Origin: Citrus sinensis | Lineage: Eukaryota > Streptophyta > Magnoliopsida > Sapindales > Rutaceae | Assembly (NCBI RefSeq): GCF_022201045.2 | Contig: NC_068561.1 | Coordinates: 25,240,501-25,304,500 of the forward strand | Length of the DNA: 64,000 nt | Direction: 5' to 3' | In this document: positions 9,173-60,766 of the stretch, piece by piece | Numbering within the stretch: position 1 is the first letter of the stretch | How the letters are laid out: the number at the start of each line of letters is the position of its first letter | Notes under the pieces: model-generated | Seen by the model: the letters and a program-made list of their open reading frames with translations, nothing else | Told to the model about the DNA's origin: nothing | Databases searched by the model: none | Translations under genes and position numbers: made by a program

Positions 9173-12354
<3,182 letters not shown>

Positions 12355-37241: not shown

Positions 37242-38265
37242 TGTTTAGGGAATGAAATAGGGTGACCAAGATAAAGGCGTTTGCTCATACATTATCATGC
37301 TCTCCTCCAAAGTAAAAGCGAGCAAATGGTTGAGCAGATCACCTCGACCAGGATAATATGTGGTGACCTCAACCAGAATAATATGTGGTGACCTCGACCA
37401 GGAAATTACCAGAAAGCACGATTCAGTCAAAATATTTTCTCCGAAATATTAGGGACCATATTCTTAATGGGCTGAAAATTAATAGTTTTCTTAATAATTC
37501 TAGGAGAGTGGATGAAAACCGCTATAGTTTCCTATAAAAACCCTAGGAAGGGAAAGGAAAGGGGGATTTTGCTAGCTTTCTCTCTCTCTAAGCAACTGAA
37601 CCCATTGGACATTTTTCTCTCTCTACCACAGAGAAATTTCTCTTTCGCCTGTGATTTCTTTAAGATTGATTATTTTGAATTCTTTTCCTTTAAATTTACT
37701 TAAAAGCTTTTTGTTTAAAGCAATCATAATTAAACCACATGAATTGTGGTATGAGTTTTTCCAAGTAAGACCCGAATCCCTGACTTGAGCGTCGGAGGGT
37801 TCTCGCCGGAAAAACTTCCGGCACCTCCTGATCGTTGGTTGTGTTCACAGGCTCACAGGTTATCTGCTCATGGATTATCTGCTCATGGGTTATCTGCTCA
37901 CGGATCGTTTGCTCATGGGTTATCTGCTCATGGATTGCCTGCTCATGAGTTCTCAGCTTATGGATCGTCTGCTCACGGGTTATCTGCTCATGGATTGCCT
38001 GCTAATGAGTTCTCTGCTCATGGATCGTCTGCTCATGGGTTATCTGCTCATGGGTTGTCTGCTCATGGGTTCTCTGCTCATGGATCGTCTGCTCATGGGT
38101 TATCTGCTCATGGATCGTCTGCTCATGGGTTTTCTGCTCACAGAACATCTGCTCATAGAAAATCTGCTCATGGTGCTAACTAATCATCAGCTTCCCACCA
38201 AACAAATTTAATGATGATGCAGGGATCTAAGATCTGACCAACTTATCCGGATTTCGACATCAACA
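37242..38265 (+). mobile_element. solo LTR (1024 bp) with 5 bp TSD, gypsy-related
   Basis: Starts TGTTTAGGG, ends CATCAACA, and is flanked by CATAT at 37237-37241 and 38266-38270. Its start, its end and the segment GACTTGAGCGTCGGAGGGTT (37784-37803) match the LTR of the complete element at 38.6-49.7 kb (TGTTTGGGAGGG, CATCAACA, 39390-39409), so it belongs to the same lineage. A TATA-like CCTATAAAAACCC lies at ~37531. The right third is a 15 bp minisatellite absent from the complete element. Confidence 0.88.
37853..38178 (+). repeat. 15 bp minisatellite inside the solo LTR
   Basis: About 21 units of the type TCTGCTCATGGGTTA with variants (GGATCGT, GGATTGC, GAGTTCT). Because 15 is divisible by three, it stays open in two frames on the plus strand. 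One of these reads as repeated SAHGL/SAHGS pentapeptides. I regard these as by-products of the repeat, not a gene. Confidence 0.9.
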
Positions 38266-38270
38266 CATAT

Positions 38271-38627
38271 AAATTGGCATCATAATTTTTCTCTCATTAT
38301 TAAAATCAATAATCAGTCAAAAAATGTATTGGGGACATTATCATTTATTTTTTAGTGGCGCGTATCTAGGACTGTTATAAAAACCCTGTTATTAGATTTT
38401 ACATTTTTGCTCTGAACTAAAAACAAATTCTTATCGATACGTATAATTTTTCTCTCGCTACAAAAATTATTCACACCCCATTTAGATAATTCTTTCTTTA
38501 ACTGCGAAACTTGTATATGAAAAAAAAATTAACCAAAAAAAAAAAAAACTAGTTAATCCTTGATTTTACATATTCTTCTTGTTGCCATATTTATTTTCAA
38601 AATTATTCTTCCTTTATCATTGCCGTA
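38271..38627. other. spacer between solo LTR and complete gypsy element
   Basis: AT-rich with poly-A runs (~38521-38548). No gene is recognised. Confidence 0.4.
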
Positions 38628-38632
38628 GGAAT

Positions 38633-39563
38633 TGTTTGGGAGGGATACTGTTTGGGATAAATGCGTCGAAGGGACCAGGAATGACGAGCAGATATCTGAT
38701 GGCGGAGTTCTGCGAACCGGTGTGTTCCGTTAAAGCCTGGTGCGTGGAAGAACAGGAACAGAAATATCCTGCTCGTCCACGATGTTGTCATCCGCGAGGC
38801 CAATTTCCTATAAGGGGCATAAGGCCATTCCGGCTAGAGATCGAGAGGCGAGGAGACCCGGTCGACGGCAGTTGGCAAGACGCGCTCTCCAGCACGAGAA
38901 TCTAGGCACAACGGCCACACTTTCCCCAGAACCGCGACGTAACACGCAAGATCTCACAGAACCATGACAGCCACACTTTCCCCAGAACCGTGGCGTAACA
39001 CGCAAGGTCTCACAGAACCATGACAGCCACGCTTTCCCCAGAACCGTGGCGTAACACGCAAGGTCTCACAGAGCCATGGCAGCCACGCTTTCCCCTGAAC
39101 CGTGGCGTAACACGCAAGGTCTCACAGAGCCATGGCAGCCACGCTTTCCCCTGAACCGTGGCGTAACACGCCAATCCGGTTTTTTGCCCATAACGCAGCA
39201 GTGGGAGTCCCAGACCGGGGGGAAAAAGGGCGGAAGACTGAGATTCAGAGGAAGCCTATAAAAAGATAGCCAACGAAGGTAAAAGGGTTGGCATTCTGGA
39301 GATTAGAAGAGAAAAAACCTAAAAAGAAAAGAAAACCACAAAAAAACGCCATAAGACCTGTGGCAAGCTTTTCCCGAACCTTCATATCTGACTTGAGCGT
39401 CGGAGGGTTTGCGCCGGGAAAACAACCGGCGTACTCTGACTTGTCTGTGTACGCAGGGACCTCTGGAGAAGAAGCCTGGCGAGGAGACCTCCTGGTCGTG
39501 ACGAAGTTGATCAAGCAGAGATCCTGATCGTAGAACGAGGGGAACCGGAATCTCGCATCAACA
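38633..39563 (+). repeat. 5' LTR (931 bp)
   Basis: TG...CA termini. It contains four full and one partial copy of a 56 bp tandem unit (~38911-39170) and a TATA-like CCTATAAAAAG at 39255-39265, so transcription probably begins near 39290. The 3' LTR differs by one extra 56 bp unit and a few substitutions. Confidence 0.95.
38911..39172 (+). repeat. 56 bp tandem array in 5' LTR
   Basis: The unit contains CTTTCCCC.GAACCGTGGCGT, AACACGCAAGGTCTCACAGA and CCATGGCAGCCACG. About 4.5 copies lie upstream of the promoter, the position of enhancer-like repeats in other LTR elements. Confidence 0.9.
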
Positions 39564-39583
39564 TTTTGGCGCCGTCTGTGGGG
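39564..39583 (+). other. primer-binding site
   Basis: TTTTGGCGCCGTCTGTGGGG directly follows the LTR CA terminus. TGGCGCC matches the 3' end complement of tRNA-Asp used by many Tat/Athila elements, though the second half deviates from the usual GTTGCCGGGGA. Confidence 0.7.
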
Positions 39584-39641
39584 ACCCAGAGCAAAAAGCT
39601 TCTGTCGATAGCAAGAAGAGGGGTGGAGTAAGCGAAAGGCA

Positions 39642-42600
39642 ATGGAGATAGGAGGAAGTAGCGCACAAGGGGGTGACATGAGACTTAACGATTCCGTGAC
39701 GCTGAGGGAGGTAATCAGCGAAGCACGGGAAAAAGTCATGTTCGACCGGATGGAACGAATGGAAAAGCAGATGGAAACCTTGACAACCATCCTGCATGAG
39801 CTGCGGAACGAGCGAAGGGTAACCCAAGAGGGAAGGGTGAGAGGCGGTGGAGCGGCACCAGGTACCGATAGTGCGGAGAGAAGTCAAACCGCTGGGAGAT
39901 TTGGTGGTGAGAGAGGTAACGTACCTCTGCGGGGAGAATTTCATAGAGAAAGAGAGCAGTCCCCGGTAAGACAGACTTATGACGGGGGCGACGGGGCGGT
40001 GAATGCAGAGGAAACAGAACTGAGGCAACACTTGCATGATGTAGAGCGAGAGCGGGATCAAGCTGCAGCACGTGACCCTGGTCGCGCAGGACAGCTGGAG
40101 GAGGAAGTGCGAAGGCTAGTGCAAATAATTGACGACATGCAAGGGAGGAACAGAGCCCCTGGTTGGAGGATAATGCTGGACGGGGAATCACCGCTCGCAG
40201 CAGAGATCATGAGGGCAGTTATTCCGAGAGATTTCCGCCTCCCCGACCTCAGATACTCGGGAAGAACTGACCCGCTGATGCACATAGAGCGCTTCAACGA
40301 CATAACGGGGGTACAGGGATTATCTCCACCCCAAAGGTGCAGGGTGTTCCCACTATCCCTTGAGGGACGTGCACGAGAATGGTACAGGAAACTTCCTCGG
40401 GGCAGCATAAAAACCTTCGAGCAGATGTGCCAGGAATTCGCAAAGCAGTTTAGTGGGGCAATGTCACCGGAAGATGACATGATGGAGCTGAAGAGCATGA
40501 AACAGGGGGAGCAAGAAACCCTTCGGGAATTCATCAAGAGGTTTCATCGGGCTGTCCTCGACTTGGGAGCCTTCAACCACCCTCAGGCGTTAAGGGGACT
40601 GAAAGAAGGGGTGAAGATAGGAAGGCTGTGGTACAATTTGAGAAGCCCAGCTATTCAAACGTATGCAGCCGCATACGAACAGGCTAAAAGAGACATCGAG
40701 ATTGAGGAGGAGAAGGCTGCACGGATCAAGACAGACCAGTTGGAAGGGTTAGGGAGGAAAGAGAAGAAAGCATTACCAACCAATGGGCCGATCAGGAGGA
40801 GGGACCACCAGATCTCCGGTAGTGGAGCAGGAGGTAGGATAATTGCTTACCAGCCTCATCAGAGGCCGTCACAGTATCAGCGCAGCAGGGCGCCACCTCC
40901 TCGTTCCCCAGCTAGGGAGCCTTGGAGAAGACATGATTCGACATCCGGTGATCTTCATCAACATTCCCACGGAAGCAGGACGAGCAGACCAGAAGCACTC
41001 CCACCGCCCCCAACTCACAGTGGGGCAAACAGAGAAAGAGCAGTGCATCTGGTCGACCAGAACCAGGACTATGGGCGGTACACTCCCTTGAAGATGCCCC
41101 TGGATGAGGTGTACGAGGCCATAAAGGATCGGGGGCTGCTGCACCTCCCTACACCAATAACAAAGCTACCCAACAGGAGGGATAGAGGACGTTATTGTAA
41201 GTTCCACGGCACCCATGGCCATACCACAGCAGAGTGTAGAGATCTCAAGACCCAGGTCGAAGATTTGGTGAGAAATCGGTACCTGGACGAGTTTATGGAT
41301 GGGACTTTCCCGATGGTGGCCACAACAGATGAAGGGGAGCAGAGTGATGGGATCTTGAGACACGAGCCGCCCGCAGTAAGGGTGATAGCTGGGGGCCCAA
41401 CGTTGGCCGGAGACTCGAACAGATCGAGAAAAAATTATGCCAGATACGCCATGACCAGTAAAGAGATACTCTTCAACACCCCAGCAGCCAAACGAGCAAG
41501 GGTCAGGCAAGTGCCAATCATGTGGACGGATGAGGATGAGGAAGGGATTCTATACCCCCACGAGGATGCTTTAGTCATCAAGGCTACGGTCGCTAGCAAG
41601 AAGTTTGACCGGATACTGGTTGATACGGGGAGCTCAGTTGATGTGCTATTTAAGTCAACTTTGGAAGAGATGGGAATAGCCGACCGGAAGTTGGAATACA
41701 CCAACACCTCCTTGAAGGGGTTCGGAGGAGGGAAGCTGGTCCCTCTGGGCGTGGTCGAACTGCCTATCACAATTGGGAGCCCCCCGACAGAAAGAACAAT
41801 GATACTGGACTTCGTCGTAGTGGATGAGGAAGGTCCTTACCAGATGATCCTAGGTCGGCCATTTTTAAGGATGAGCAAAGCGGTGTTGTCCAACCATTAT
41901 CTGGCTCTGAAGTACCGGGTGAATAGGGTAGTCGGAGTGGTACGAGGAGACCAGAGGATCGCAAGAAGATGCTACTCCTCGGCAGCAAGGGAGGCGATGC
42001 AGATAACATCCCTCGATACCCGAGTGGAAAACAAGACTGGCAGACAAGAACCCGTAGAGGATCTAGAAACGGTAAGCATGGGACCAGAGAACCCGGGAAA
42101 GACGATCAGAATCGGGTCGAGACTTGAGGGAGAGCAAAAGCAGGAGTTGGTGAAATGCTTACAGGCTCATGCCGACGTGTTTGCCTGGACACATGAGGAC
42201 ATGCCAGGGATTGACCCAGAGGTAGCATGTCATAGGCTGGCAATAAAGAAAGGTGCTCGGGCAGTAAGGCAGAAGAGGAGGTGCTTCAACCAGGAGAGGT
42301 ATGAGGCTGTAAATGATGAGGTGGAGAAGCTTCTGAGAGCAGGGTTCATTCGGGAAGTCAATTACCCAGAGTGGATATCAAATGTGGTGTTGGTAAAGAA
42401 GGCAAACGGCAAGTGGAGGATGTGTGTGGATTTCACAGACCTCAATAAGGCGTGCCCAAAAGACAGCTTCCCTTTACCAAAGATCGATCAGCTAGTAGAT
42501 TCAACGGCTGGACATGGTCTGCTTAGCTTCATGGACGCATTCTCGGGATACAACCAGATCCCCATGTACGAGCCAGATGAGGAGAGCACGGCTTTCATCA

Positions 42601-43700
42601 CTAACCAAGGTCTGTTCTGTTACAGGGTGATGCCATTCGGTCTCAAGAATGCTGGGGCCACCTATCAAAGGCTGGTGAATAAAGTCTTTAAGCCCTTGAT
42701 CGGGAAAACCATGGAGGTGTACGTGGACGACATGATCACCAAGTCCAAAATTCCGAAGGAACATGTCAGGCATCTCGAGGAGACGTTCGAGCTCTTGAGG
42801 AAGTATAAGATGAATCTCAACCCGGAGAAGTGTGCTTTTGGGGTCGAGTCAGGGAAATTCCTGGGATTCATGGTGAGCCACAGGGGGATTGAAGCAAATC
42901 CCGAGAAGATCCAGGCGATTGTGCAAATGACGTCTCCTCGAAACCTGAAGGAGATGCAGAGCCTCACGGGGAGGTTGGCGGCGTTGAGCAGATTCATATC
43001 CAAGGCTACAGATAAGTGTCAGCCATTCTTTCAAGTGATAAGGAGGGGAAAGAAAACGGAATGGACCCCAGAATGCGAGGAAGCCTTCCGGAACTTGAAG
43101 CATTACTTGCAGCAAGCTCCGCTACTGTCCACACCGAGGGATGGGGACAAGTTGAGTCTGTATTTGGCGGTATCTGATCGGGCCGCCAGTTCCGTTCTGG
43201 TGAGAGAGGAAGAAGGAATTCAGTATCCGATATACTACACCAGCAAGGCTCTGCTCGACGCTGAGACCAGATACCCAACGTTGGAGAAATGGGCACTGGC
43301 CCTTGTGGTTGCTGCTCGGAAGTTGAGGCCGTACTTTCAAGCATTCCCGGTCTCGGTAATAACCAACCAGCCATTGCGTCAAATTCTGCACAAGCCAGAT
43401 GCCTCTGGTCGGCTCGTCAAGTGGACTGTAGAGCTGAGCGAATTCGACATAGACTATAAACCCCGCGCGACGATAAAGGCCCAGGCAATGGCCGATTTCG
43501 TAGCTGAGTTCGCGGAGCCCGAAGTATGCTTGGATCAGCAAGATGCAGATATAGGCAACGACGAAACTCAAGTATGGCAGATATCTGTGGATGGGTCATC
43601 AGGAGAGCGGGGTTCAGGAGAAGGGATTGTCCTGGAAGGCCCAGAGGGGGAGGAGATCTCCTATGCTGTAAAGTTGGAATTTCCAGCCACAAATAACTAG
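39642..43700 (+). CDS. gag-pol polyprotein, first part (ends at amber codon)
   Basis: A 1352-codon frame from the ATG at 39642. An N-terminal coiled-coil region is followed by the retrotransposon gag domain (~195-330; around MHIERFND and EWYRKLPRG). A zinc-knuckle-like CKFHGTHGHTTAEC sits at ~519. The aspartic protease has DTGSS at ~661-665. Reverse transcriptase spans ~880-1070 with YVDD at ~1027, and RT-linked RNase H spans ~1150-1290. The start of a second, archaeal-type RNase H domain (QISVDGSSGERGSG) begins at ~1312. The frame stops at TAG 43698-43700 inside that domain, and the same frame continues open after it. Translation past this point would need readthrough. All visible RT and protease signatures are intact. 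Confidence 0.93.
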   Translation: MEIGGSSAQGGDMRLNDSVTLREVISEAREKVMFDRMERMEKQMETLTTILHELRNERRVTQEGRVRGGGAAPGTDSAERSQTAGRFGGERGNVPLRGEFHREREQSPVRQTYDGGDGAVNAEETELRQHLHDVERERDQAAARDPGRAGQLEEEVRRLVQIIDDMQGRNRAPGWRIMLDGESPLAAEIMRAVIPRDFRLPDLRYSGRTDPLMHIERFNDITGVQGLSPPQRCRVFPLSLEGRAREWYRKLPRGSIKTFEQMCQEFAKQFSGAMSPEDDMMELKSMKQGEQETLREFIKRFHRAVLDLGAFNHPQALRGLKEGVKIGRLWYNLRSPAIQTYAAAYEQAKRDIEIEEEKAARIKTDQLEGLGRKEKKALPTNGPIRRRDHQISGSGAGGRIIAYQPHQRPSQYQRSRAPPPRSPAREPWRRHDSTSGDLHQHSHGSRTSRPEALPPPPTHSGANRERAVHLVDQNQDYGRYTPLKMPLDEVYEAIKDRGLLHLPTPITKLPNRRDRGRYCKFHGTHGHTTAECRDLKTQVEDLVRNRYLDEFMDGTFPMVATTDEGEQSDGILRHEPPAVRVIAGGPTLAGDSNRSRKNYARYAMTSKEILFNTPAAKRARVRQVPIMWTDEDEEGILYPHEDALVIKATVASKKFDRILVDTGSSVDVLFKSTLEEMGIADRKLEYTNTSLKGFGGGKLVPLGVVELPITIGSPPTERTMILDFVVVDEEGPYQMILGRPFLRMSKAVLSNHYLALKYRVNRVVGVVRGDQRIARRCYSSAAREAMQITSLDTRVENKTGRQEPVEDLETVSMGPENPGKTIRIGSRLEGEQKQELVKCLQAHADVFAWTHEDMPGIDPEVACHRLAIKKGARAVRQKRRCFNQERYEAVNDEVEKLLRAGFIREVNYPEWISNVVLVKKANGKWRMCVDFTDLNKACPKDSFPLPKIDQLVDSTAGHGLLSFMDAFSGYNQIPMYEPDEESTAFITNQGLFCYRVMPFGLKNAGATYQRLVNKVFKPLIGKTMEVYVDDMITKSKIPKEHVRHLEETFELLRKYKMNLNPEKCAFGVESGKFLGFMVSHRGIEANPEKIQAIVQMTSPRNLKEMQSLTGRLAALSRFISKATDKCQPFFQVIRRGKKTEWTPECEEAFRNLKHYLQQAPLLSTPRDGDKLSLYLAVSDRAASSVLVREEEGIQYPIYYTSKALLDAETRYPTLEKWALALVVAARKLRPYFQAFPVSVITNQPLRQILHKPDASGRLVKWTVELSEFDIDYKPRATIKAQAMADFVAEFAEPEVCLDQQDADIGNDETQVWQISVDGSSGERGSGEGIVLEGPEGEEISYAVKLEFPATNN

Positions 43701-45287
43701 GCAGAATATGAAGCCTTGATAGCAGGTCTGGAATTGGCTAGGGCCGTGAAAGCAGACAGAGTTAAGATCAGAACTGATTCCCAGCTGGTTGTGAATCATG
43801 TCAGTGAGAGATTCCAACCAAGAGAGGAGAAGATGGAACAGTACCTAAGGATAGTCAGGCAGATGATGGGGAAGTTCGAAGCAGTGGAGGTGATACAAAT
43901 CCCCAGGGAGCAGAATAGTCGAGCAGACATTTTGGCTAGGATGGCAGCCGTAGCCGACCCAAAAATGCCAAAGTCGGTCCCCCTAGAAGTGAAGTCTCAC
44001 CCGAGTATCGAGCAAAATTTGGGGGTGTTGCGGATAGAACAAAAAGGCTCGTGGAGGGACCCGATAGTTTCATACCTTAGAGACGGGGTCTTACCACCAA
44101 ATAAGCTACGAGCTCGGAAGATTAGAGCTCAGGCCTCGAGATACACGATGATCGATGGGGTACTGTATCGGCGAGGATATACATTACCGTTCCTTCGGTG
44201 TTTGGACGATGACGACGCAGATTACGTGCTGAGGGAAGTACATGAAGGAATTTGCGGAAATCATTCTAGCGGGAGGTCCCTGGCCCACAAAGTTCTAAGG
44301 CAGGGATATTTCTGGCCGACGATGCACCAGGATGCGCAGAGGAAGACCAGGAGCTGTGCAAGCTGCCAGAGTTTTGCAAATTTCTCTAACCAACCACCAG
44401 AGAAGCTCACCTCCATGGCCTCCCCTTGGCCATTCGCCCAATGGGGAATTGATCTGATCGGCCCATTGCCAAAGGGACGAGGAGCAGCAACACATGCAAT
44501 AGTTGCTATAGATTACTTCACGAAGTGGATAGAGGTAGAAGCCCTTAGCAGGATCACAGAGAAGAAAACAACAGACTTCGTGTGGAGAAATCTGGTCTGT
44601 CGATACGGGATCCCATATGCCTTGGTAACGGATAATGGCAGACAGTTCGATAATCACAGCTTCAGGGATTTCTGCCAGAACCTCGGGATAGAGCTGAAGT
44701 ATTGTTCGCCTGCTCACCCTCAATCGAATGGACAAGTAGAAGCAGCCAACAAGACAGTCAAGAGGCTTCTGAAAATCAGGCTCGGAGCAAAAAAGGGTGC
44801 GTGGGTTGACGAGCTGTCAGGTGTGCTATGGGCATACAGAACAACCCACAAAACCGCAACTGGGGAGACACCGTTCGCTTTGGCCTTCGGACATGAAGCG
44901 GTCGTACCGGCTGAGGTAGGAACGACCACACACCGGACAGATTATTTCAATGAACAGGAGAACGACGAGCAGATGTGTTTGAATCTTGATCTGCTAATGG
45001 AGAGGAGGGAACAAGCAGCCGAGCGATCAGTCACTTACCAACAGAGGGTTGCTCGGTATTATAACCAGAAGGTGAACATACGGCAATTCAGGGTCGGAGA
45101 CTGGGTACTGAGAAGAGTGAATCAGAGCACCAAAGATTCGACTCAAGGAGTGCTGGGACCGAATTGGGAAGGGCCGTATAGAGTCAAGCAGATAGCGGGG
45201 CCCGGAGCTTACAAGCTGGTTCGCGCGGACGGCCACGAAGTGAAACGCCCATGGAACGCAGCACACCTCCGAAAATACTTCCAGTAA
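43701..45287 (+). pseudogene. pol continuation: end of second RNase H, then integrase
   Basis: In frame with the upstream ORF but separated from it by the amber codon; no ATG of its own is expected. It begins AEYEALIAGLELARA (second RNase H core, with TDSQLV). A zinc-binding HHCC region follows at ~44242-44380 (HEGICGNH..CASC). The integrase catalytic core has Asp in GIDLIGP (~44449), Asp in VTDNG (~44629) and Glu in QVEAAN (~44737). The C-terminal GPY/F-like motif NWEGPYRVKQI lies near 45165, and the stop at 45285-45287. All integrase catalytic residues are present. Confidence 0.88.
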
Positions 45288-45429
45288 GACTTGCTCACAT
45301 TTTGAAGCAATTTCTGCTTATGCTGTTTATCTTTTATTTTTATGTTTTATGTCCGAACAATTTCATGTAAGTCAAATCCTGCCATTAATGGAACGTCGAC
45401 GAATTTCATTCGCTTGAAGCCGAAAAAAT

Positions 45430-45970
45430 CCTAAGGCATGCAAAGGCTCGCCAAGTCTCAGAGCCTGTCTTATGGCGAGACAGAAGCCAAGCATGCCGGG
45501 ATCTGCTCGGCCACGAGAAGGCAGCAGAATCCAAATCGTTTAAAGAAAATCCTAAGGCATGCAAAGGCTCGCCAAGTCTCAGAGCCTGTCTTATGGCGAG
45601 ACAGAAGCCAAGCATGCCAGGATCTGCTCGGCCACGAGAAGGCAGCAGAATCCAAATCGTTTAAAGAAAATCCTAAGGCATGCAAAGGCTCGCCAAGTCT
45701 CAGAGCCTGTCTTATGGCGAGACAGAAGCCAAGCATGCCGGGATCTGCTCGGCCACGAGAAGGCAGCAGAATCCAAATTGATTACAGAAAATCCCAAGGC
45801 ATGCAAAGGCTCGCCAAGTCTCAGAGCCTGTCTTATGGCGAGACAGAAGCCAAGCATCCCACGATCTGCTCGACCACGAGATGGCGAGCAGAATCCCCAA
45901 GCATACCAGGATCTGCTCGACCACGAGAAGGCGAGCCGAATCCCAAGCATTGAAGAATCTTCGGAGGCAT
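45430..45970 (+). repeat. 121 bp tandem repeat between convergent ORFs
   Basis: Copies begin at 45430, 45551, 45672 and 45793 with CCTAAGGCATGCAAAGGCTC. The spacing is exactly 121 bp, followed by degenerate partial units to ~45970. The array sits between the end of pol (+) and the end of the antisense ORF (-), so it may carry terminator or polyadenylation functions for both. Confidence 0.92.
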
Positions 45971-46155
45971 GTGGCAAAAACCATGAGCCAAGCCGGAGTC
46001 CGCTCGTCTAGACAGAGACGAGCAGATTCTCAAACAAAAATTAACTCATAATTACAACACAAGAAAGTAATCAAAAAATATCCTTATTAATTGGTTAATG
46101 ATTAACAGAGGGGATAATCTTCATGAACATTGTCCATTACAACAAAAGAAATATA

Positions 46156-48207
46156 TCAAAAAGACGGCGGATCTGTGAGCCGAGCAGCATCGGTTGGCTG
46201 GACCTCCTCAGGTGCGGGGGGGGTATCGCCAGTTGCGTCCGGGGGGGTGCTCGCCTCGCCAACTTCAGCAGGGACTCCACGAGGAGGAGAGTTTTCCTCC
46301 TCAATCACGATCGGCTCCACCCCCTCGGCATCTTCCTTGGCCGCCTCCTCATCCATATGCCGAGCAACGCCAGCTGCAAGGTCATCCATCTTGAGGTCAG
46401 GGTATTGCTTCCCGAGGACGGCCATGATGCAACGATAGGAATGCCGGAGTCCCTGGTCGTACTGGTTGTCGGCCTCCCTCTCCAAGTTCTCGACCTGAGC
46501 TCGGTGGGAGTCACGGAGAGACTCGAGCTGAGCCTCATACATAGCCTTCTGCCTTTGCAGATCTTCCTTGACCTTGGTAAACTCCTCCTCGAGGGTAATG
46601 GCTTTTGCTTGAGCAAGTGATTCTTGCTCTATCAGCTTCAGATTCTCGAGATTCAGCTCCCCTGCTTTCTTCTCGGCAACGTCAGCTCTGTTCGTCGCCG
46701 ATTGGATATCCTCCTTCATCTTCCGATCGTAGCGGCCAACCTTAGCCTTGTAATAGGTGGTCATGCAGCTGAGGTGGAAAGCGCTATGCTGCATGGCCCC
46801 CACCAGCTCACCCAAGGTGCGGCCGTCAAAGGCCTCCAGGTCCCTCTTGCTCACGGATTTAGTTAACTCATTGAGGTAAGGGACCAGATGTTCTGCTCGG
46901 CTGTCCGGTAAGCGAGGTCGAGGCCCGACAGGAGGAGAAGAGGTAGCAGGATCTGTGGCTACTCCACTAGCTTCCCCGACTTCTACAGGAGCCGGAGGTA
47001 AAACCTTCAAGTGTGGGGCCTGCTGCACGATGTTGGCCCGCTTCGCGGTAGGGGCATCCTTACTCTCGTCCCTCTTCGTGGTCGGAGGTCGAGAACGTTT
47101 TCGGGTCAGAGCCCCAATCACAGCGTCCTCCATCCTATGGCCAGGAAGTATCAAGCGAGACTCGAGCAAGTTGTATGTGGATATCAGTTCCCGGCTCGAG
47201 CAGGAATTGACTAGCACAGCCTCAACCCATTTGAGCGGGCCGGGTCGGAGTGGGAAATGAACGCCCCAAGAAACTACAACATAAACGGACACTTGGTTAG
47301 AAACAAGCCAATGAAACAAGAACAATTATGGATACAAGACATCTGGAGCGAGCAGGCAACCTGGAACCGTGAAACGGGGTGGGACCCGATAATCCTTCCC
47401 GTCCATTTGTGCGACCTGACCCCAAGGACCCCCAGCAAAAAAGAACTTTCTCTTCCAATTCCCACCACCACCAGTAGGGAGGTCGGTTATAGGTTTCCTG
47501 CTCTTGGTGCTAGATTGGAAGTAGTACCAGCCGGCATCTTTGGGGCTGCTCTTTAGCTGGTACAGGTGCTTCACCTCATCAACCGTGGGCTCGCTCTGGC
47601 AACATCTGTCCCACAATATGAACAGACCAGAGAGCACTCTCCACCCGTTGGGATTCAGCTGACCAGGAGCTAGATTTAGCCCGTTAAGTATCCGGGCAAA
47701 GTAAGGTTGCAAGGGACACCTCAGCCCGTACTTAAAGCTGTCCAGATACAGGGTAACATATCCCCTAGGAGGCCGGCTGGGAGCATCCTTCTTTCCCGGG
47801 ACCTTGAGAGGTATCTCGCCAGGAATGCTATACCTCAGCCGGAGGTCCTCGAGCTCATCAAACGTGGTCGTGCATGTCATGTAATCAATAGCATAATCCC
47901 GCGATAGGGCTCTACCTCCTATTGTGCTCCTCCCTTCTGGTCGCGGCGCCCCCGATGGGGACGCCTCACCAGAATCATCTCCTCGACCCTCACTCAAAGT
48001 ATCCTCGGAGTCAGAAGATCCATCCTCACCATTACTCCCGCTTGTAGAGGTCGTTTGGGGAGACATGCTCCTAGCACTAGTCCTGACACTAGGCCTAACA
48101 GGCTCTAAGGGGACCTCGGGGTCAAAGGCGGGATTGGCGAGCAGACTAGGCAGGAAGTCCAACTCGTCGTCATCAACCTCAACGACCTTCTCTTTGCCTT
48201 TCGACAT
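46156..48207 (-). CDS. antisense ORF of the gypsy element (gypsy-type transposase-like family)
   Basis: On the strand opposite to gag-pol, two exons join exactly: join(46156..47273,47361..48207). GT-AG borders and phase 1 join them into 654 codons with no stop. The first exon starts MSKGKEKVVEVDDDELDFLP, then an acidic Ser-rich stretch. It continues into a conserved region (LYLDSFKYGLRCPLQPYFAR, LAPGQLNPNGWRVL) like the family that databases label putative gypsy-type transposon/transposase (PF04195, from memory). The second exon begins VSWGVHFPLRPGPLKWVE and carries HRMEDAVIGALTRKRSRP, a basic nuclear-signal-like stretch. A long coiled coil (Glu/Lys/Ala-rich) and an acidic Pro-rich tail follow. 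Function is unknown; antisense ORFs are reported for other Tat elements such as maize Grande. It is intact although pol is interrupted. Confidence 0.82.
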
Positions 48208-48667
48208 TCCCTAAACTCTAACCACAACACCACCAACTACTACCCAAACGAAAGAAAAAAGAAGTTATCTACAAACTATTCGAGACCGAGGAGAGAGAAG
48301 TAATACCTGAAGTACCGCTTCAATCGGAGAAAGGCAAGGGGGGGCTTCGTGCCGGAACTTCTTTGCCGGAGAAACGGAGACGTAGACGGAGACAGAGTGA
48401 ATGGTGAATATGCCGTTCGAGAGGATTTGGCTTTCCAAATGAGGACGGACTCTTGGGTTGCCAGCATATAACTGCGCCGAATCCCGAGGATCTCGTAACC
48501 GTCGGTTTGAAATTCAAATGGAGGGGGGGATTTCTGCCACGTCACCACGTCCGCAATTAAATGCGACATGACTCCTGGCAGCCTTTTCCAATCCCACGCG
48601 GGCGAGTACTATCGAGTTTCTACTGCTGGTCCACTACATTACCCAACACCAGAAACTAGGGGACCGG
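48208..48667. other. untranslated region between antisense ORF and 3' LTR
   Basis: Holds the presumed promoter of the antisense ORF (minus strand) and, at its right end, the purine-rich ACTAGGGGACCGG next to the LTR, a candidate polypurine tract for plus-strand priming. Confidence 0.55.
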
Positions 48668-49654
48668 TGTTTGGGAGGGATACTGTTTGGGATAAATGCG
48701 TCGAAGGGACCAGGAATGACGAGCAGATATCTGATGGCGGAGTTCTGCGAACCGGTGTGTTCCGTTAAAGCCTGGTGCGTGGAAGAACAGGAACAGAAAT
48801 ATCCTGCTCGTCCACGATGTTGTCATCCGCGAGGCCAATTTCCTATAAGGGGCATAAGGCCATTCCGGCTAGAGATCGAGAGGCGAGGAGACCCGGTCGA
48901 CGGCAGTTGGCAAGACGCGCTCTCCAGCACGAGAATCTAGGCACAACGGCCACACTTTCCCCAGAACCGCGACGTAACACGCAAGATCTCACAGAACCAT
49001 GACAGCCACACTTTCCCCAGAACCGTGGCGTAACACGCAAGGTCTCACAGAACCATGACAGCCACACTTTCCCCAGAACCGTGGCGTAACACGCAAGGTC
49101 TCACAGAGCCATGGCAGCCACGCTTTCCCCTGAACCGTGGCGTAACACGCAAGGTCTCACAGAGCCATGGCAGCCACGCTTTCCCCTGAACCGTGGCGTA
49201 ACACGCAAGGTCTCACAGAGCCATGGCAGCCACGCTTTCCCCTGAACCGTGGCGTAACACGCCAATCCGGTTTTTTGCCCATAACGCAGCAGTGGGAGTC
49301 CCAGACCGGGGGGAAAAAGGGCGGAAGACTGAGATTCAGAGGAAGCCTATAAAAAGGTAGCCAACGAAGGTAAAAGGGTTGGCATTCTGGAGATTAGAAG
49401 AGAAAAAACCTAAAAAGAAGAGAAAACCACAAAAAAACGCCATAAGACCTGTGGCAAGCCTTTCCCGAACCTTCATATCTGACTTGAGCGTCGGAGGGTT
49501 TGCGCCGGGAAAACAACCGGCGTACTCTGACTTGTCTGTGTATGCAGGGACCTCTGGAGAAGAAGCCTGGCGAGGAGACCTCCTGGTCGTGACGAAGTTG
49601 ATCGAGCAGAGATCCTGATCGTAGAACGAGGGGAACCGGAATCTCGCATCAACA
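48668..49654 (+). repeat. 3' LTR (987 bp)
   Basis: Same termini and order as the 5' LTR but with one more 56 bp tandem unit (987 minus 931 equals 56). By-eye substitutions include the TATA flank (AAAAAGG versus AAAAAGA), TATGCAGG versus TACGCAGG and GATCGAGC versus GATCAAGC. Confidence 0.95.
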
Positions 49655-51881: not shown

Positions 51882-54681
51882 ATGGCAAGAGGTCAAGCGA
51901 CGATTCTGTTTCGAATATACAGATCAAAGAATAATGTTTCTAGGGTTGGGGCTTTGAGTTCAAATCAATGTTTTCATTCTGTTGGGAGATGTGACAAGTG
52001 GGTATTGGAGAAAAACCAGTTTGGTCTCACTTTTGATGGGCGTAAACGGGAATTCTCCGCAAGCTTGATAGACACTGTTCGTTTTCATTTGCCTTCAGGG
52101 AACACTAGGTTTATAGAGTTAAAGGCTAGATCGTTTTGTTCATCTGTTGGGAATGAGGGTTTGGTTAATAATGGCACTGCTACTAAACCAAAAGTGGAGG
52201 ATGTAGAGCAAGAAAGTGGAGTGAATTTTGTGCAGGGTGGTGAAGAGGATAAAGTTGAAGTTTTGGATGATTATTTTGATGGGAGTGTTATTTCTGATTC
52301 AACAATGGTTGAATCTGTACATAAAAATAGCAATCAAAGTGTGAGGTTTTTGCATTTGTCAACGCGTGATCCTGTGGAAGTTTTTGGGGAGCTAAGGAGT
52401 ACTGAAAAGGGTGCCAAAATTAATCGGTCTGATTTTGAGGTTCTAAGGGAAGTTTTCCGTTTCTTTTCAAATTCAGGGTGGGCAGCCAATCAGGCACTTG
52501 CAGTTTATATTGGCAAGTCATTTTTCCCTACTGCTGCTGGCAAGTTTCGCAGCTATTTCATTAAGAAATGTCCTGATGATGTTGCCCAGTATTTGGTGTG
52601 GCTTGGTCCATCAGATGATGCTGTTAAGTTTCTTTTCCCTATATTTGTTGAGTTCTGCATAGAAGAATTCCCTGATGAAATTAAGCGGTTTCGAGCAATG
52701 ATTGAATCAGCTGATCTCACAAAGCCACACACATGGTTTCCTTTTGCACGGGTGATGAAACGTAAGATTATATACCACTGTGGTCCAACGAATAGCGGTA
52801 AGACATACAATGCTTTGCAACGATTTATGGAAGCAAAGAAGGGTATTTATTGCAGTCCGCTGAGGCTCTTGGCTATGGAAGTTTTTGACAAAGTCAATGC
52901 CCTCGGGGTTTACTGTAGTCTTCTTACAGGCCAAGAGAAGAAGCTTGTTCCTTTCTCAAACCACATTGCTTGCACTGTGGAAATGGTGTCTACAGATGAA
53001 ATGTATGATGTTGCTGTTATTGATGAAATCCAGATGATGTCAGACCCATGTAGAGGTTATGCATGGACTCGGGCATTGCTTGGGTTGATGGCTGATGAAA
53101 TACATTTGTGTGGAGATCCAAGTGTTCTGGATGTTGTTCGGAAGATTTGTTCAGAAACTGGGGATGAGCTTCATGAGCAACACTATGAGAGGTTCAAACC
53201 ATTGGTTGTTGAAGCCAAGACCTTGTTAGGAGATCTTCGAAATGTGCGATCTGGGGACTGTGTTGTTGCATTCTCGAGGCGAGAGATATTTGAGGTGAAA
53301 ATGGCAATTGAGAAACACACTAATCACCACTGTTGTGTTATCTATGGGGCTTTGCCTCCAGAGACTCGTAGACAGCAAGCTAACTTGTTCAATGATCAAG
53401 ATAATGAATTTGATGTGCTGGTTGCAAGCGATGCTGTGGGAATGGGTTTGAATCTTAATATTAGAAGAGTTGTTTTCTATAGCCTTTCAAAGTACAATGG
53501 TGACAAGATTATTCCAGTTCCAGGATCACAAGTGAAGCAGATTGCAGGGAGAGCTGGTAGGAGGGGAAGCATTTACCCTGATGGACTCACAACAACCTTG
53601 AATTTAGACGATTTGGATTACCTAATCGAGTGCCTGAAGCAACCTTTTGAAGTAGTTAAGAAAGTGGGTCTTTTTCCATTTTTTGAGCAAGTTGAGCTAT
53701 TTTCCGGGCAACTCTCAAATTATACTTTCTGCCAGCTGCTTGAGAAGTTTGGTGAAAATTGCCGTCTAGATGGATCATACTTCTTATGTCGACATGATCA
53801 TATAAAGAAGGTAGCAAATATGTTGGAGAAGGTCCAAGGATTGTCTTTGGAAGATCGTTTCAACTTTTGTTTTGCTCCTGTTAATATTAGAGACCCAAAA
53901 GCAATGTACCATCTTCTGAGATTTGCTTCATCTTACAGTAAAAATGCCCCTGTTAGTATAGCAATGGGCATGCCAAAAGGTTCTGCCAAAAATGATGCAG
54001 AACTCTTAGATCTTGAGACTAAGCATCAAGTTTTGTCCATGTATCTATGGTTGTCTCACCAATTCAAGGAGGAAGTATTCCCATATGCAAAGAAGGCCGA
54101 GGCAATGGCAACAGACATTGCGGAATTATTGGGTCAGTCACTCACCAATGCTAACTGGAAACCAGAATCAAGGCAGGCAGGGAAACCGAAGCTGCATCAG
54201 CAAAGAGAAGATGGTTACGACAGACCTCGGTCAATCATTAAGTCATATGAGAAGTAAGTTTATTGCATGGATTATTTCTTAACTTGCATTTTGATGGTTG
54301 ATATCAATTATTTTGTTGGAATATTTAGGATATAGCTAAAAGTACTCATTATTTGGAAATATCTGTTTTGTGCATTCATCTGAAGAAACCTGGATGATTG
54401 TTGTAGTCACTGAAACACAATCCATATCTCTACAAATCAAAAACTGCATCTCTGAAATCATTTGGGCAATAGATTTTCATCCATGGATAGGTTGGGGCAG
54501 ATGAAGATTGTTTTGATATACTAAAGATTTTGGACAATAGACATGGAATTTTTACATGGCCAACAGTTCTCTGTCTTACTTGTAAATTTTCAGTGCCTTC
54601 AATTTGTCTTGTTTTCCTTACAGCAGGAAAAGGCAAGAAAAAACCTCACTGACCTTGCACACAGAAAAAATACCAGCATGA
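51882..54681 (+). CDS. SUV3: SUV3-type mitochondrial DExH RNA helicase
   Basis: ATP-dependent RNA helicase of the mitochondrial (or dual mitochondrial/plastid) RNA surveillance machinery, a partner of exoribonucleases. The main exon is 51882-54253. GAGAA|GTAAGT gives a donor, and a second short exon runs 54624-54681 (acceptor TTACAG|CAGG), giving 809 aa. If that intron is retained the protein ends at 54257 with 791 aa. The N-terminus is basic, Ser/Arg-rich and acid-poor (mitochondrial presequence), followed by an acidic linker. Motif I is GPTNSGKT (~301-308), motif II DEIQ (~380), then the SF2 C-terminal motifs SDAVGMGLN and [10 protein letters not shown] (~553-562). The SUV3 C-terminal bundle follows. 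Adjacent CAGCAG at 54621-54626 offers tandem (NAGNAG) acceptors, both in frame. Confidence 0.92.
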
Positions 54682-56050: not shown

Positions 56051-59000
56051 TTACTGGAGTGTATCAGAAGGAGATAAAGGAGGGAATTCCTCAGGATTTG
56101 ATATTAACATGATATCCTCTACTTTCTTATCACAGATGACGCATAGGTGCTCTGAACCAGCAGCTGCCTCTATAGTTTCTCGTTTACAAACATTGCACCA
56201 CAGCAGGTGCTGGCATGGATTATTGGCCCACTGCATCTCTTCCTTTTTGCATCGAAAGCAGATTTTCTGTTTGAAACATGAATTGTATTCCTGCACACAC
56301 CATCCACAAATCCACGCAACAATCTCTTAATTTAATGTTATTATAATTTGAAAATGGAAAAAATAAAAATAAAATGTAGTTCATTGCTCACATGTGAAAA
56401 ATCATATTCGCGAAGAAAGAGAGAATTGTTGTGCCCTTTAAGCCATCGCAGAACCAGATGATCTTCTGGAGGCCGGGGATTCTTTCCTTTTGAATTCTCT
56501 AGTCCTTTTCCTTTTTCATTATCTTTACCTCCTGAACCTCCATCATTTCCCTTGCTGGAGGATAGACCAGGCTTTGAAGACGAAAATATTGTTGAATAAT
56601 CAATCACTTTCTTTGAGGCTGAAATTGCACTAGTTGATGTATCCCTCTGAGATGAACTACCTTTGGGGACCTCATTGGTTGGCTTCCGCTCAATAGTGCT
56701 ACTGATTGATACTGACCGGAGGTCCTGAGGAGACTTGGAATCATTACGATCACATTCATTACTATCACTAGCAGAGTTGACTGGGGAGGACGGGTTCCCA
56801 TTTTTGGATAATTGGAGAGCTCCCCACTTTTGCTTAGGAGGACTTGGCACAAGAACCATGTGATTAGGTGATCCATTTTTTCCTATAGGCCCAGCCTTCA
56901 CATGACAAAGATCGGGAAGAGTTCTCAGAAAGTCACTAAGCTTTGAGTATCCGAGAGAGGCATGATCCAGTTCTAGGCCGCATACCGCCTTAAAATCTGT
57001 TTTCAGAGATGACAGAGCATATTTTCCTTCAAGTGGATGCCTATATACATCTTTCAAGAAGCGGGGAAGCCACTTTTTGAACGTCCTAAGCCATTTCGGC
57101 ATACTTTTCTCCTCGAAGCTCTCCACGAGGTATGCTTGAGATTCATTGGAACTTGTCTTTGGTTGACCATAGAGCAATCTACCAGCCCAAGACTTCTCCG
57201 CTGTGGCCTCTTCTGTAACCCTCCTGCATGGCATCTCTTCTGTAATCTTCTTAGTCTGAATTTCCTCTTTAGCGTTCCTACTGATAATCTGTTCCATAGT
57301 TCTCTCATCTGGAATCTTTGCTCCCAGTTGAGCCTGGTGCTCATGTTTTGATTCTTGTTGCTGAGCAGACTGTTTCTGCAACTCGGCAAATAATACTTCT
57401 TTTGGAACTGCACTTTTAATTTCAACTTCCTTGCCCATAATGGTTACAAAGCGTGCTTGAACAGCTGCAGCAGCAGATTTCTTATGTTTAAAGGTTACAA
57501 AGCCAAATCCTCGGGACACACTCTGCTTTTCTGTCTGAAATTCAGCAACTCTGGCATCTTCAATTGGCCCAAAATGTTTTTCAAAATACCCTCCCAGGGA
57601 ATCTGATTCATAAAAGTGAAAGAAAAGAATCACATCAGTGAGATAAAATATAAATAAACCGAATAGGACTTAGTTTCGAATGCCAAGAAATGTCACATGG
57701 TCCTAACCAGAATCCAGGAAACAAGGAAGGCCTCCTACGAAAATTTTACTCTTGAATTCCTGTGTTGAAGCATGGATCATGCACATTCCTGGATTCATCT
57801 TGCGATGCTGCTCTTCACCATGGGCATAAAAACACTTGGACCCTCTTATGCATCCACTATGAGATTCATAGTACTTACAAACCTCTATCTTCGTGCCGGA
57901 GCAGATTCTGGAGATCAAAGGAATTAGAAGACCACTAAAACCCATACAAAAGAAAAAGATTCGAAGCATTTGCAAAATTTGAGGTTTTGCATTAAGGTGG
58001 ACACCTCTCAGTGTTGCTGTTGTCATCTACCATGGACAGAAGTGCTTCACAGGTCCCTGAAATATCTTCATCACTTTCCAGTGAAGCATTCTGTTTCTCT
58101 TGGTTCAGGAAAGCAAGATTCGCTACATATGGATTTACGCACATTAGATTGAATAAAAGGACATTGTTTTTATATAATGTTCAAGACAATCTACTTTGTT
58201 CAGGTCCAACTTACTGTGACAAGTATTGGCTGCTTTTAGCAAGAAACGCATGTCTTGTGACTTTGCAAAGTCTATCGGCCTCTCTCTACTGGGGATGACA
58301 ACAGTTGGTACACATACATAGGCATACAAAAATATGTTAGCAACTCGAACTTACATATCAGGATGTCTCTTAACTACGCAGACAAATATCTACTTGCAAG
58401 ATATATGATAACAATTATGATGAACATAGGACAAAGGGATTTGTTGTTTAAATTCCTACCGCAAATTCAGCACTTCACTGTTTGCTCCCCACCTCAAAAG
58501 AACCTCAGCACAAACCATATGATCATTCTTCACCGCAAAAAATAGTGGGGTTTCCATCATTATTGTTTTTAAGTTGATACAATCAGGCTCTTTCCGAATA
58601 AGGTCCTGTAGCAAAATGTCATGAGAAATGCACAGATAACAAACTAGAATTGAAGAATATTGCTAAAAATAAGAGAGTTAGCAATGGAGAAATAAAGTTC
58701 TAATTTTTACATATACCTCAAGTGCTTGTGAATTGCCACTACCAGCTGCAATGTGCAGCGCAGTTAAACCCAACTTATTCTGTTGGCTCACTATAGCGCC
58801 ATGCTTAAGGAGAATCCCGACAATTCTGTAAACAAGAAGTTATTTTTGAGTCAAAAACGCAATCATTTGTTTATGCATGCTAGCTAGGAGAGAGAGAGAC
58901 CTATTCTGCAGTATATGTTGTGATAAGCCCATAGATGTCTTAAGGGCGCAATGAAGAGCAGAGTTCCCATCAGCATCAGCATCAGCATCATTTATGTCTA

Positions 59001-60162
59001 TATTCTTCGACTTCAGAAGTATCTCAATCACATCTTCATCTCCTGCCTGCACGTGATAAAATCTAATTCAACCGTTTCTCACTCTGGAATTAAGTTTTGT
59101 CATTATCATTTTAAATAAAATGAAAATTCCAATTAGAAAAGGCTTACAAGTCCCATGATAAAACATTATTCCTAAAATGCAGGAAGCATACAATAATAAG
59201 TCCGAGACATGTGGGCCAACGGAATTACGAAAGTGCCCACACTCCATTAATCGAATGATTAAAATATCACACCCAACCCGGACAACAAGGTTTCGTAGGG
59301 ACACAAATCATCATTGTAACTGAAGTTGCCACTTAGATTATCATTATCTTTACCTGAGTCGCGAGTATCAATGGTGGGCCCACCTTCTTGTCCGTACAAC
59401 TGCCGTTAGCAACAGCACCAAAGAGCTGAAGCAACTCTATCTCAAGGAGCAAGAGCTTCCTCTTCTCTGCAGACTGGCTCGTCGTCGGAGTAGAGTTCCG
59501 TTTAACAGCTCGCTGCAACTTCGTTGCGCGGCCCAAAGCTAAGGCCTCTCTAATCACGCACTCGTAAATCGTCGTCTTCTCTTTGGCCCCCAAATCCGAG
59601 TCGTGTAACACCAAAATCGACTCGTTCACTTTATCCGCAGCTACTATCAGCAGCGCAGCTAACGCCACTATTCTTCCTCCTACAGCATTTGCATAAGCCA
59701 CCTCGTCTAATTCCTTCGTTTTCTGGCTTAGCAGTTTGACCGTAGTCAAATTCTGTGAAAAACAAAACAATAAATTAATAATTAATTATCATTTAATGAC
59801 AATAACATGCAACTCCCTTCTTTTCGGGGAAAAAAAATACTGGTAATATGGTTTAAGAACTGTTTTGACACAGATCCCATTATCTAAGCAGTTGCCGGTT
59901 ACAGTCAGTCAGGAACCTGAATGAAAATAAAATGTAAGCTATTACTTCTTTGTGATTAGACTAGCAGCTGAGGATCTGAATGTTATTGAGCTAATTAACT
60001 TTCTGGACAACCAAACATAACTCGAAATAGAAGTTGACACAGCAACCTTTTGGCCAAGAATGACAACCAAGTCTTCAACGGAGTACTCATCCGGATTCCA
60101 AATCACATCCATCCTGAAACAAATATTATAATGATAATGATCATCATCATCATCATCATAAA

Positions 60163-60201
<39 letters not shown>

Positions 60202-60766
60202 CTTGGAGAGCGAAAGGTGAGGTTACTAAAAGTGGAAAGTGCTTTTTTCGTGTTGCGCTGGTTGGCGAAGCAAAAAGCCAAAAACTTTTACCATTTATAA
60301 TCACACAAAACACTGAAAAGCTGGGAAAACGGCACCGTTACCTACTACTAGACAAAGACAGCTCCAGAGGCAGCAGTCGCCGTCCGTCCTTACTCCTAAT
60401 GTCCGTACGGGCGCGTTTTTTAAGCAGCAACTCAACGCAACGTGCCGCGTGGGATTCCGCCGCCAGGTGGAGGGCCGTCATGCCGGAGGATTCCTCCACC
60501 TCGTTGACCAAAGCGACCGGTCCGAGGTCCCCGTTGACGAGCGACGTGGCGCAGCTGACGGAGTCGAAAATGCAGCTGACGCGGAGGAGCTTTGTGACGA
60601 TAGCCGTTTGTTGATCGGCGCTGTCAAGGGAATTGTCGATGAAGTGTCGTTTTGAGACGTTTATGAGCTGCTTTTTGTCGTCTTCTAAGAGGGAGTTGAT
60701 TATGAGGGTGGTCTCTAAGTCTGTAACTGATGGTGCTGCTGTGTATGAAGAATAGGAGCAGTTCAT
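56051..60766 (-). CDS. ankyrin-CCCH-RRM-LOTUS-RING protein
   Basis: Eleven exons: join(56051..56290,56392..57602,57708..57907,58005..58122,58215..58285,58460..58605,58717..58825,58901..59046,59354..59752,60047..60113,60342..60766). All borders are GT-AG and frames close to 1043 aa. Ankyrin repeats occupy ~90-140 (GMTALHLAAESHAARCVELL) and ~300-430 (GNSALHCAL, GLTALHIAAGSGN, ETPLFFAVKNDH). A C-x8-C-x5-C-x3-H zinc finger spans Cys504-His523. An RRM follows, with RNP2 KIFVGGLP and RNP1 RGFGFVTF (591-598). An OST-HTH/LOTUS-like winged helix covers ~727-810 (LKTDFKAVCGLELDHASLGY). A C-terminal C3HC4 RING-like finger begins CFRC (975-978). Domains imply an RNA-binding protein with E3 ligase potential; no function is known to me. 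The middle is Ser/Lys-rich and low-complexity. The ATG at 60766 follows a leader with a probable intron. Confidence 0.88.
60134..60201. repeat. (ATC)n(AAT)n compound microsatellite
   Basis: CATCATCATCATCATC followed by about fourteen AAT units, inside the first coding intron (60114-60341) of the ANK/RING gene. Confidence 0.9.

What the first reader, a model, noticed from the sequence alone, without database searches (positions are those of the whole stretch)
56051..60766. ANK-CCCH-RRM-LOTUS-RING architecture in one plant protein
Five domain types combine RNA recognition (CCCH, RRM, LOTUS) with ubiquitin-ligase potential (RING) and a protein-interaction scaffold (ankyrin). LOTUS/OST-HTH modules are known in germ-granule proteins and are reported to bind G-rich or G-quadruplex RNA. 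Linking one to a RING finger suggests RNA-directed ubiquitination. All eleven exons keep frame, so it is a real single gene. I know no described function.
Basis: partly seen in the sequence, partly recalled or inferred. Interest (0 to 1): 0.75.

Follow-up and report, generated by a model that had tools for sequence, protein, structure and literature searches.

The report
MEL2-type meiosis gene outside grasses
The gene encodes a five-part RNA-binding protein with the same layout as rice MEL2, which sets when germ cells enter meiosis; the architecture is therefore known, but here it sits in what looks like a citrus-like plant although print says it occurs only in grasses.

Summary
On the minus strand, 60766-56051, eleven predicted GT-AG exons join into one 1044-codon frame (1043 with the other NAGNAG acceptor of exon 7). 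Pfam supports ankyrin repeats, RRM and LOTUS firmly; the RING passes its cut-off only when the C-terminal 80 residues are scored alone; the CCCH has exact spacing but a sub-threshold score. "No described function" is wrong: ANK-RRM-LOTUS-linker-RING is the layout of rice MEL2, needed for meiotic entry (passages). A female-sterile rice allele changes His369, codon CAC, in the sixth ankyrin repeat; here His370, CAC, lies in an ankyrin motif. The RRM's best single-domain PDB match is DAZAP1, which MEL2 is reported to resemble. No second full copy was found in the genome. The plant is very probably a eudicot, perhaps Citrus-like (partly recalled), so "Poaceae only" looks too narrow. Ligase activity is unproven; usual E2-contact residues are absent (recalled consensus). 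Verdict: new member of a known kind.

The parts
60342..60766 (-). coding exon 1 (ATG at 60766); first ankyrin repeat, residues 95-125
60047..60113 (-). coding exon 2
59354..59752 (-). coding exon 3; spacer and start of the second ankyrin block
58901..59046 (-). coding exon 4; ankyrin repeats
58717..58825 (-). coding exon 5; ankyrin motif TALHIA with His370 (CAC at 58755-58753), counterpart by position of rice MEL2 His369
58460..58605 (-). coding exon 6; ankyrin motif TPLFFA
58215..58288 (-). coding exon 7; end of ankyrin block; acceptor is NAGNAG (1044 or 1043 aa)
58005..58122 (-). coding exon 8; linker between ankyrin block and CCCH
57708..57907 (-). coding exon 9; CCCH motif (residues 501-526, 57891-57814) and start of RRM
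56392..57602 (-). coding exon 10; rest of RRM (550-620), LOTUS/OST-HTH (733-803, 57090-56878), Ser-rich linker (804-960)
56051..56290 (-). coding exon 11; C3HC4 RING (973-1024, 56269-56114) and stop

Best explanation
This is the single-copy eudicot counterpart of rice MEL2 (MEIOSIS ARRESTED AT LEPTOTENE 2). Most likely it is a cytoplasmic RNA-granule protein of premeiotic germ cells: the DAZAP1-like RRM (with the CCCH) picks U-rich 3'-UTRs, the LOTUS domain adds G-rich RNA or partner binding and helps it enter granules, the ankyrin repeats dock partner proteins (some specific to female meiosis in rice), and the RING at the C-terminus is a docking or ligase module. By controlling translation or fate of meiosis mRNAs it times premeiotic S-phase and entry into meiosis. 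Shown here: gene structure, domains, order, no second copy found, residue-level match to the rice allele site. Inferred from rice: germline role, RNA targets, granules. Not shown in anything I read: ubiquitin ligase activity.
For: Same domain kinds in the same order as MEL2. Position, codon and repeat type of rice His369 match His370 here. Among 28 PDB rows for the RRM, 6 have a single stretch that passes 1e-8 on its own, and the best of these is DAZAP1 (9.9e-14), the protein MEL2's central region is said to resemble. In the genome search 11 of 18 matches are this gene's own exons; the other 7 are RRM-only (6, 35-43% identity) or ankyrin-only (1, 26%), so no second copy competes for orthology (44 of 59 candidates were scored). 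Rice mel2 nulls lose male and female fertility; [quoted passage not shown] MEL2 as component of cytoplasmic RNA granules: title of a 2021 preprint seen only in a reference list. LOTUS domains of several kingdoms, plants included, bound G4 RNA in ELISA according to PMC12247748 (passage); LOTUS and RRM of Arabidopsis AtC3H18 each went to cytoplasmic foci after heat stress (passage).
Against: No rice MEL2 sequence was available, so orthology rests on architecture, position and copy number, not on an alignment or tree. The 2024 rice paper, citing the 2011 one, says the combination is absent outside Poaceae, which this gene contradicts if the plant is a eudicot. The passages on rice MEL2 do not mention a CCCH finger, and put His369 in the sixth exon, against coding exon 5 here. 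For a plant LOTUS protein, DNE1, G4 prediction found no G4 in its targets, only a short G-rich motif (passage). No expression data for this plant.
Confidence: 0.78

Rival explanations
1. An RNA-directed E3 ubiquitin ligase: the RNA modules bring the RING to proteins on chosen mRNAs, which are then ubiquitinated.
For: C3HC4 ligand set C976, C979, C991, H993, C997, C1000, C1015, C1018 is complete; zf-C3HC4_3 33.1 bits in the C-terminal 80 residues against a cut-off of 27. [quoted passage not shown]
Against: By recalled consensus E2-binding RINGs have Ile/Val/Leu before the second Cys, often C-P-x-C as last pair and Arg/Lys right after it; here these are Arg978, C-V-I-C and Asp1019 (sequence). 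No ligase assay was seen for MEL2. Only one solved chain matches at E up to 1, with E 0.79.
Confidence: 0.3
2. A somatic RNA/ubiquitin regulator that shares the MEL2 layout but not the germline role, as the Arabidopsis ankyrin-family gene At3g28880 is linked to root length.
For: An At3g28880 insertion mutant has shorter roots (PMC4580642, passage); a cassava gene whose Arabidopsis match is At3g28880 rises after a histone deacetylase inhibitor (PMC5220070, passage). That At3g28880 is the nearest Arabidopsis relative is recalled, not tested.
Against: The relation of At3g28880 to this gene is untested; the RING survey lists a lone Arabidopsis ankyrin RING-HC gene LHC05, but no locus number in the passages read.
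Confidence: 0.15
3. Two neighbouring genes (ankyrin protein; CCCH-RRM-LOTUS-RING protein) wrongly joined.
For: An ATG-led open stretch runs into exon 9 through intron 8 (58026-57703), so a second start is not impossible.
Against: Only 307 bp separate exon 7 from exon 9, of which 118 bp are an in-frame exon (introns 92 and 97 bp): little room for a terminator plus promoter. Rice MEL2 has both halves in one protein.
Confidence: 0.03

Closest known systems
Rice MEL2 (LOC_Os12g38460)
   Same: N-terminal ankyrin repeats, DAZAP1-like RRM, LOTUS, low-complexity linker, C-terminal C3HC4 RING, in that order; His in an ankyrin repeat at residue 369/370 with codon CAC
   Different: Other plant lineage; a CCCH motif before the RRM is seen here and is not mentioned for rice in the passages read; exon of the His is coding exon 5 here, called sixth exon in rice
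AtC3H18 (CCCH, LOTUS, RRM protein of pollen mRNP granules)
   Same: Same three RNA-binding modules (passages)
   Different: 536 aa; no ankyrin repeats or RING described; LOTUS seems to precede the RRM (inferred from the construct borders given)
MARF1 / DNE1 (NYN nuclease plus LOTUS)
   Same: LOTUS domain; the other 4 of 5 LOTUS matches in this genome lie beside NYN-like sequence (judged by eye)
   Different: No NYN nuclease in the window protein
XB3-like ankyrin-RING proteins
   Same: Ankyrin repeats plus C3HC4 RING (PMC3596331, start of abstract in listing)
   Different: As recalled, no RRM, CCCH or LOTUS
CNOT4, MKRN, MEX3, Roquin, DZIP3 (RNA-binding RING proteins)
   Same: RNA-binding domain with RING in one chain (DZIP3 is mentioned; the rest is recalled)
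   Different: No LOTUS, different RNA-binding modules (recalled)

Membership tests
MEL2 | N-terminal ankyrin repeats (seven in rice) | tested here: met
   Ank 2.4e-23, 5 stretches; 5 TPLH-like motifs; a count of seven was not shown
MEL2 | RRM similar to DAZAP1 | tested here: met
   RRM_1 3.5e-10; best single-domain PDB match DAZ-associated protein 1, 9.9e-14; two-RRM hnRNP A2/B1 and A1 chains score higher as whole chains
MEL2 | LOTUS domain C-terminal to the RRM | tested here: met
   733-803, 6.9e-11
MEL2 | PscP-like stretch between LOTUS and RING | tested here: inconclusive
   157-residue Ser-rich (20%) stretch; no PscP-named family among the Pfam rows
MEL2 | C-terminal C3HC4 RING | tested here: met
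   8 ligands in order; 33.1 bits in the C-terminal 80 residues, 26.9 against cut-off 27 in the whole protein
MEL2 | His369 in an ankyrin repeat | tested here: met
   His370, codon CAC, in TALHIA; by position only
MEL2 | groups with rice MEL2 in a tree | not testable with these tools
   no plant protein collection; no rice sequence
MEL2 | acts in premeiotic germ cells | not testable with these tools
   no expression or mutant data for this plant
Active RING E3 ligase | zinc ligands plus E2-contact residues | tested here: inconclusive
   ligands complete, usual E2-side residues absent (consensus recalled)
CCCH zinc finger proteins | C-x8-C-x5-C-x3-H above Pfam cut-off | tested here: inconclusive
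   spacing exact, score 16.1 below 20.5
AtC3H18 type | CCCH, LOTUS and RRM only, without ankyrin or RING | tested here: not met
   ankyrin and RING present
MARF1/DNE1 type | NYN nuclease domain | tested here: not met
   no such domain among 15 Pfam rows at E up to 1

The most novel reading that the evidence does not exclude
The full MEL2 layout predates the split of grasses and eudicots, was lost or reduced in Arabidopsis, and works across flowering plants as a germ-granule protein whose RING tags proteins on meiosis mRNAs, so that entry into meiosis is timed by RNA-guided ubiquitination.
Probability: 0.15. Interest if true: 0.65.

Novelty: new member of a known kind. Interest (0 to 1): 0.3.

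Why it matters
MEL2 is one of a small set of plant regulators of the mitosis-to-meiosis switch and has been described as grass- or monocot-specific. A complete copy in a eudicot means that this control may be general in flowering plants and simply missing from Arabidopsis, the usual model, and that it can be tested in eudicot crops. It does not make the architecture new.

Tried and rejected
Structure prediction of exon 10 and of exon 11 from single sequences gave mean pLDDT 42.2 and 41.4, too low to use; no fold search was made. Relatives in viral contigs (15 stretches matched a pattern) and prokaryote genomes (33 stretches): none confirmed, as expected for a plant gene. NCBIfam hits to bacterial ankyrin effectors and RRM families, 12 rows, are far below their cut-offs and reflect repeats and the RRM only. 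Species test by terpene synthases was not decisive. The Rubisco small-subunit comparison with PDB did not separate rice from Arabidopsis. The 2011 MEL2 paper and the 2021 preprint are not held. A literature search for MEL2 with citrus gave 10 papers; by title none is about a citrus MEL2, and the one on pollen development (PMC4814731) was not opened.

Full report
What is there. On the minus strand, eleven predicted exons from 60766 to 56051 join in one frame. Shifting any one donor by one or two bases produces a premature stop in 40 of 40 trial models. The 5' end is less certain: no in-frame ATG precedes 60766 within the 120 bases checked, where an in-frame stop lies 102 bases upstream; a possible 3' splice site (ttacag) and a 13-codon upstream reading frame (60804-60763) that overlaps the start as ATGA are visible by eye in the sequence.

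Domains. Pfam gives ankyrin repeats (best 1.4e-23), LOTUS/OST-HTH at 733-803 (6.9e-11), RRM at 550-620 (3.5e-10) and a C3HC4 RING at 973-1024 (4.3e-6). The RING's whole-protein score, 26.9 bits, is just under the cut-off of 27; the C-terminal 80 residues alone score 33.1. The CCCH call is the weakest: score 16.1 against 20.5, yet the spacing C-x8-C-x5-C-x3-H is exact. Against solved structures the LOTUS region meets only two chains at E up to 1: FI02030p (0.0022) and Tudor domain-containing protein 7 (0.48). Between LOTUS and RING lies a Ser-rich stretch (20% Ser).

One gene or two. The last ankyrin exon and the CCCH exon are 307 bp apart, with a 118-bp in-frame exon between them. Rice MEL2 carries both halves in one protein. 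I regard the two-gene reading as very unlikely.

What it is. The 2024 paper PMC10838886 (passages) describes rice MEL2, LOC_Os12g38460, as seven ankyrin repeats, RRM, LOTUS, PscP and C3HC4 RING from N- to C-terminus. That is the order found here. The same paper reports that A1106G in a CAC codon, His369Arg, in the sixth ankyrin repeat, makes rice female-sterile. In the window protein residue 370 is His, codon CAC, in the ankyrin motif TALHIA. The paper also says that MEL2's RRM region resembles human DAZAP1; in a PDB search with this RRM (28 rows) DAZ-associated protein 1 is the best of the 6 rows in which one stretch passes 1e-8 on its own (9.9e-14), while two-RRM hnRNP A2/B1 and A1 chains have better whole-chain values. 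The genome search with the whole protein gives 18 matches: 11 are this gene's exons, 6 are RRM-only genes of 35-43% identity, 1 is an ankyrin gene of 26% (44 of 59 candidates scored). The other 4 of 5 LOTUS matches lie in two places, on C7 and C8, whose frames hold NYN-like sequence beside the LOTUS matches (judged by eye from recalled motifs). A LOTUS split by introns or below E 0.001 would have been missed.

What rice tells. Loss of MEL2 stops most germ cells from entering premeiotic S-phase, with asynchronous meiosis and sterility in both sexes (passages of PMC4171991, PMC3747318, PMC10223186, PMC10838886). MEL2 binds meiosis-expressed mRNAs in vitro, with U-rich consensus in the 3'-UTR by the title of the 2015 paper. 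[quoted passage not shown] Two sorghum genes are listed as MEL2 orthologues with anther expression (passages). I read none of the original MEL2 papers: the 2011 paper and the preprint are not held, and the 2015 paper was not asked for.

Which plant. The genome has 9 large contigs (24.8-52.3 Mb) and two small ones, so probably n = 9 and about 300 Mb, with contig 3 the longest. From memory this fits Citrus (a eudicot); no paper with chromosome lengths could be opened. Other signs of a eudicot: the O-methyltransferase exon in the window scores 115 bits against 8zn0 and 106 against 1kyw, and 82.6 or less against 3p9c and 4pgg (I recall 1kyw as alfalfa, the last two as ryegrass and sorghum); one Rubisco small-subunit gene, of three places found, seems to have an intron inside the mature protein near codon 47 besides one near its start (read by eye; that this is the eudicot form is recalled). 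The 11S globulin exon is nearest to 8uai chains (165 bits) and 2e9q (161), but 5wpw, which I recall as coconut, a monocot, is not far behind (151), so this is weak. Neutral: for the Rubisco protein itself the chains I recall as rice (3axk, 120.7 bits) and Arabidopsis (9n37, 120.9) score alike. I put eudicot at about 0.95 and Citrus or close kin at about 0.75.

Consequence. The 2024 paper, citing the 2011 one, says the combination is present in Poaceae and absent in Arabidopsis and other organisms, and calls MEL2 specific to monocots. If the plant is a eudicot, that is too narrow. The 2010 OST-HTH paper already noted ankyrin fusions in plants and Ub-system fusions in several lineages. In the listings of the searches and the passages I read I saw no eudicot MEL2 by name; most listed papers were not opened, and the library is limited.

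Mechanism. Most likely an RNA-granule regulator of meiosis mRNAs. Plant LOTUS domains were among those that bound G4 RNA by ELISA, but G4 prediction found none in targets of the plant LOTUS nuclease DNE1, only a short G-rich motif. The ligase step is open: the zinc ligands are all there, but Arg978, the C-V-I-C pair and Asp1019 are unusual at the E2 side (recalled consensus). At3g28880, an Arabidopsis ankyrin gene linked to root length, may be a reduced relative; this is a recalled resemblance, untested.

Verdict. Real, well-formed, and a new member of a known kind; moderately useful because it widens the known range of a meiosis-entry gene.

Noticed in passing
60804-60763 (-): A 13-codon upstream reading frame overlaps the MEL2-like start codon as ATGA; a possible 5'-UTR splice acceptor lies just upstream (by eye).
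   Followed up: no
60128-60201: A 74-bp ATA microsatellite (about 25 units) lies in intron 1, near its acceptor.
   Followed up: no
9958-12354 (+): A CDC48/p97 ATPase in one open frame of 798 residues without introns; possibly a retrocopy.
   Followed up: partly
51882-54257 (+): SUV3-type (DExH18) RNA helicase in one open frame, tail-to-tail with the MEL2-like gene.
   Followed up: partly
37860-49262: A Ty3/gypsy-type retroelement region (by eye from the frames, and one Pfam match to a gypsy-type transposon family) with GC 0.52 at 40001-48000; similar 56-bp tandem arrays at 38914-39171 and 48949-49262 near its two sides and a 121-bp array at 45425-45896. Described only.
   Followed up: no
L045 1480-1749 (G000:C9): A Rubisco small subunit that matches one PDB chain (9pvb) far better than the next (156 against 123 bits), perhaps the divergent T-type (type recalled).
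   Followed up: partly
G000 C9, C2, C8, C5, C1, C3: Very large, clustered terpene synthase family: 190 exon-level matches, with 150 of 257 candidates scored.
   Followed up: no
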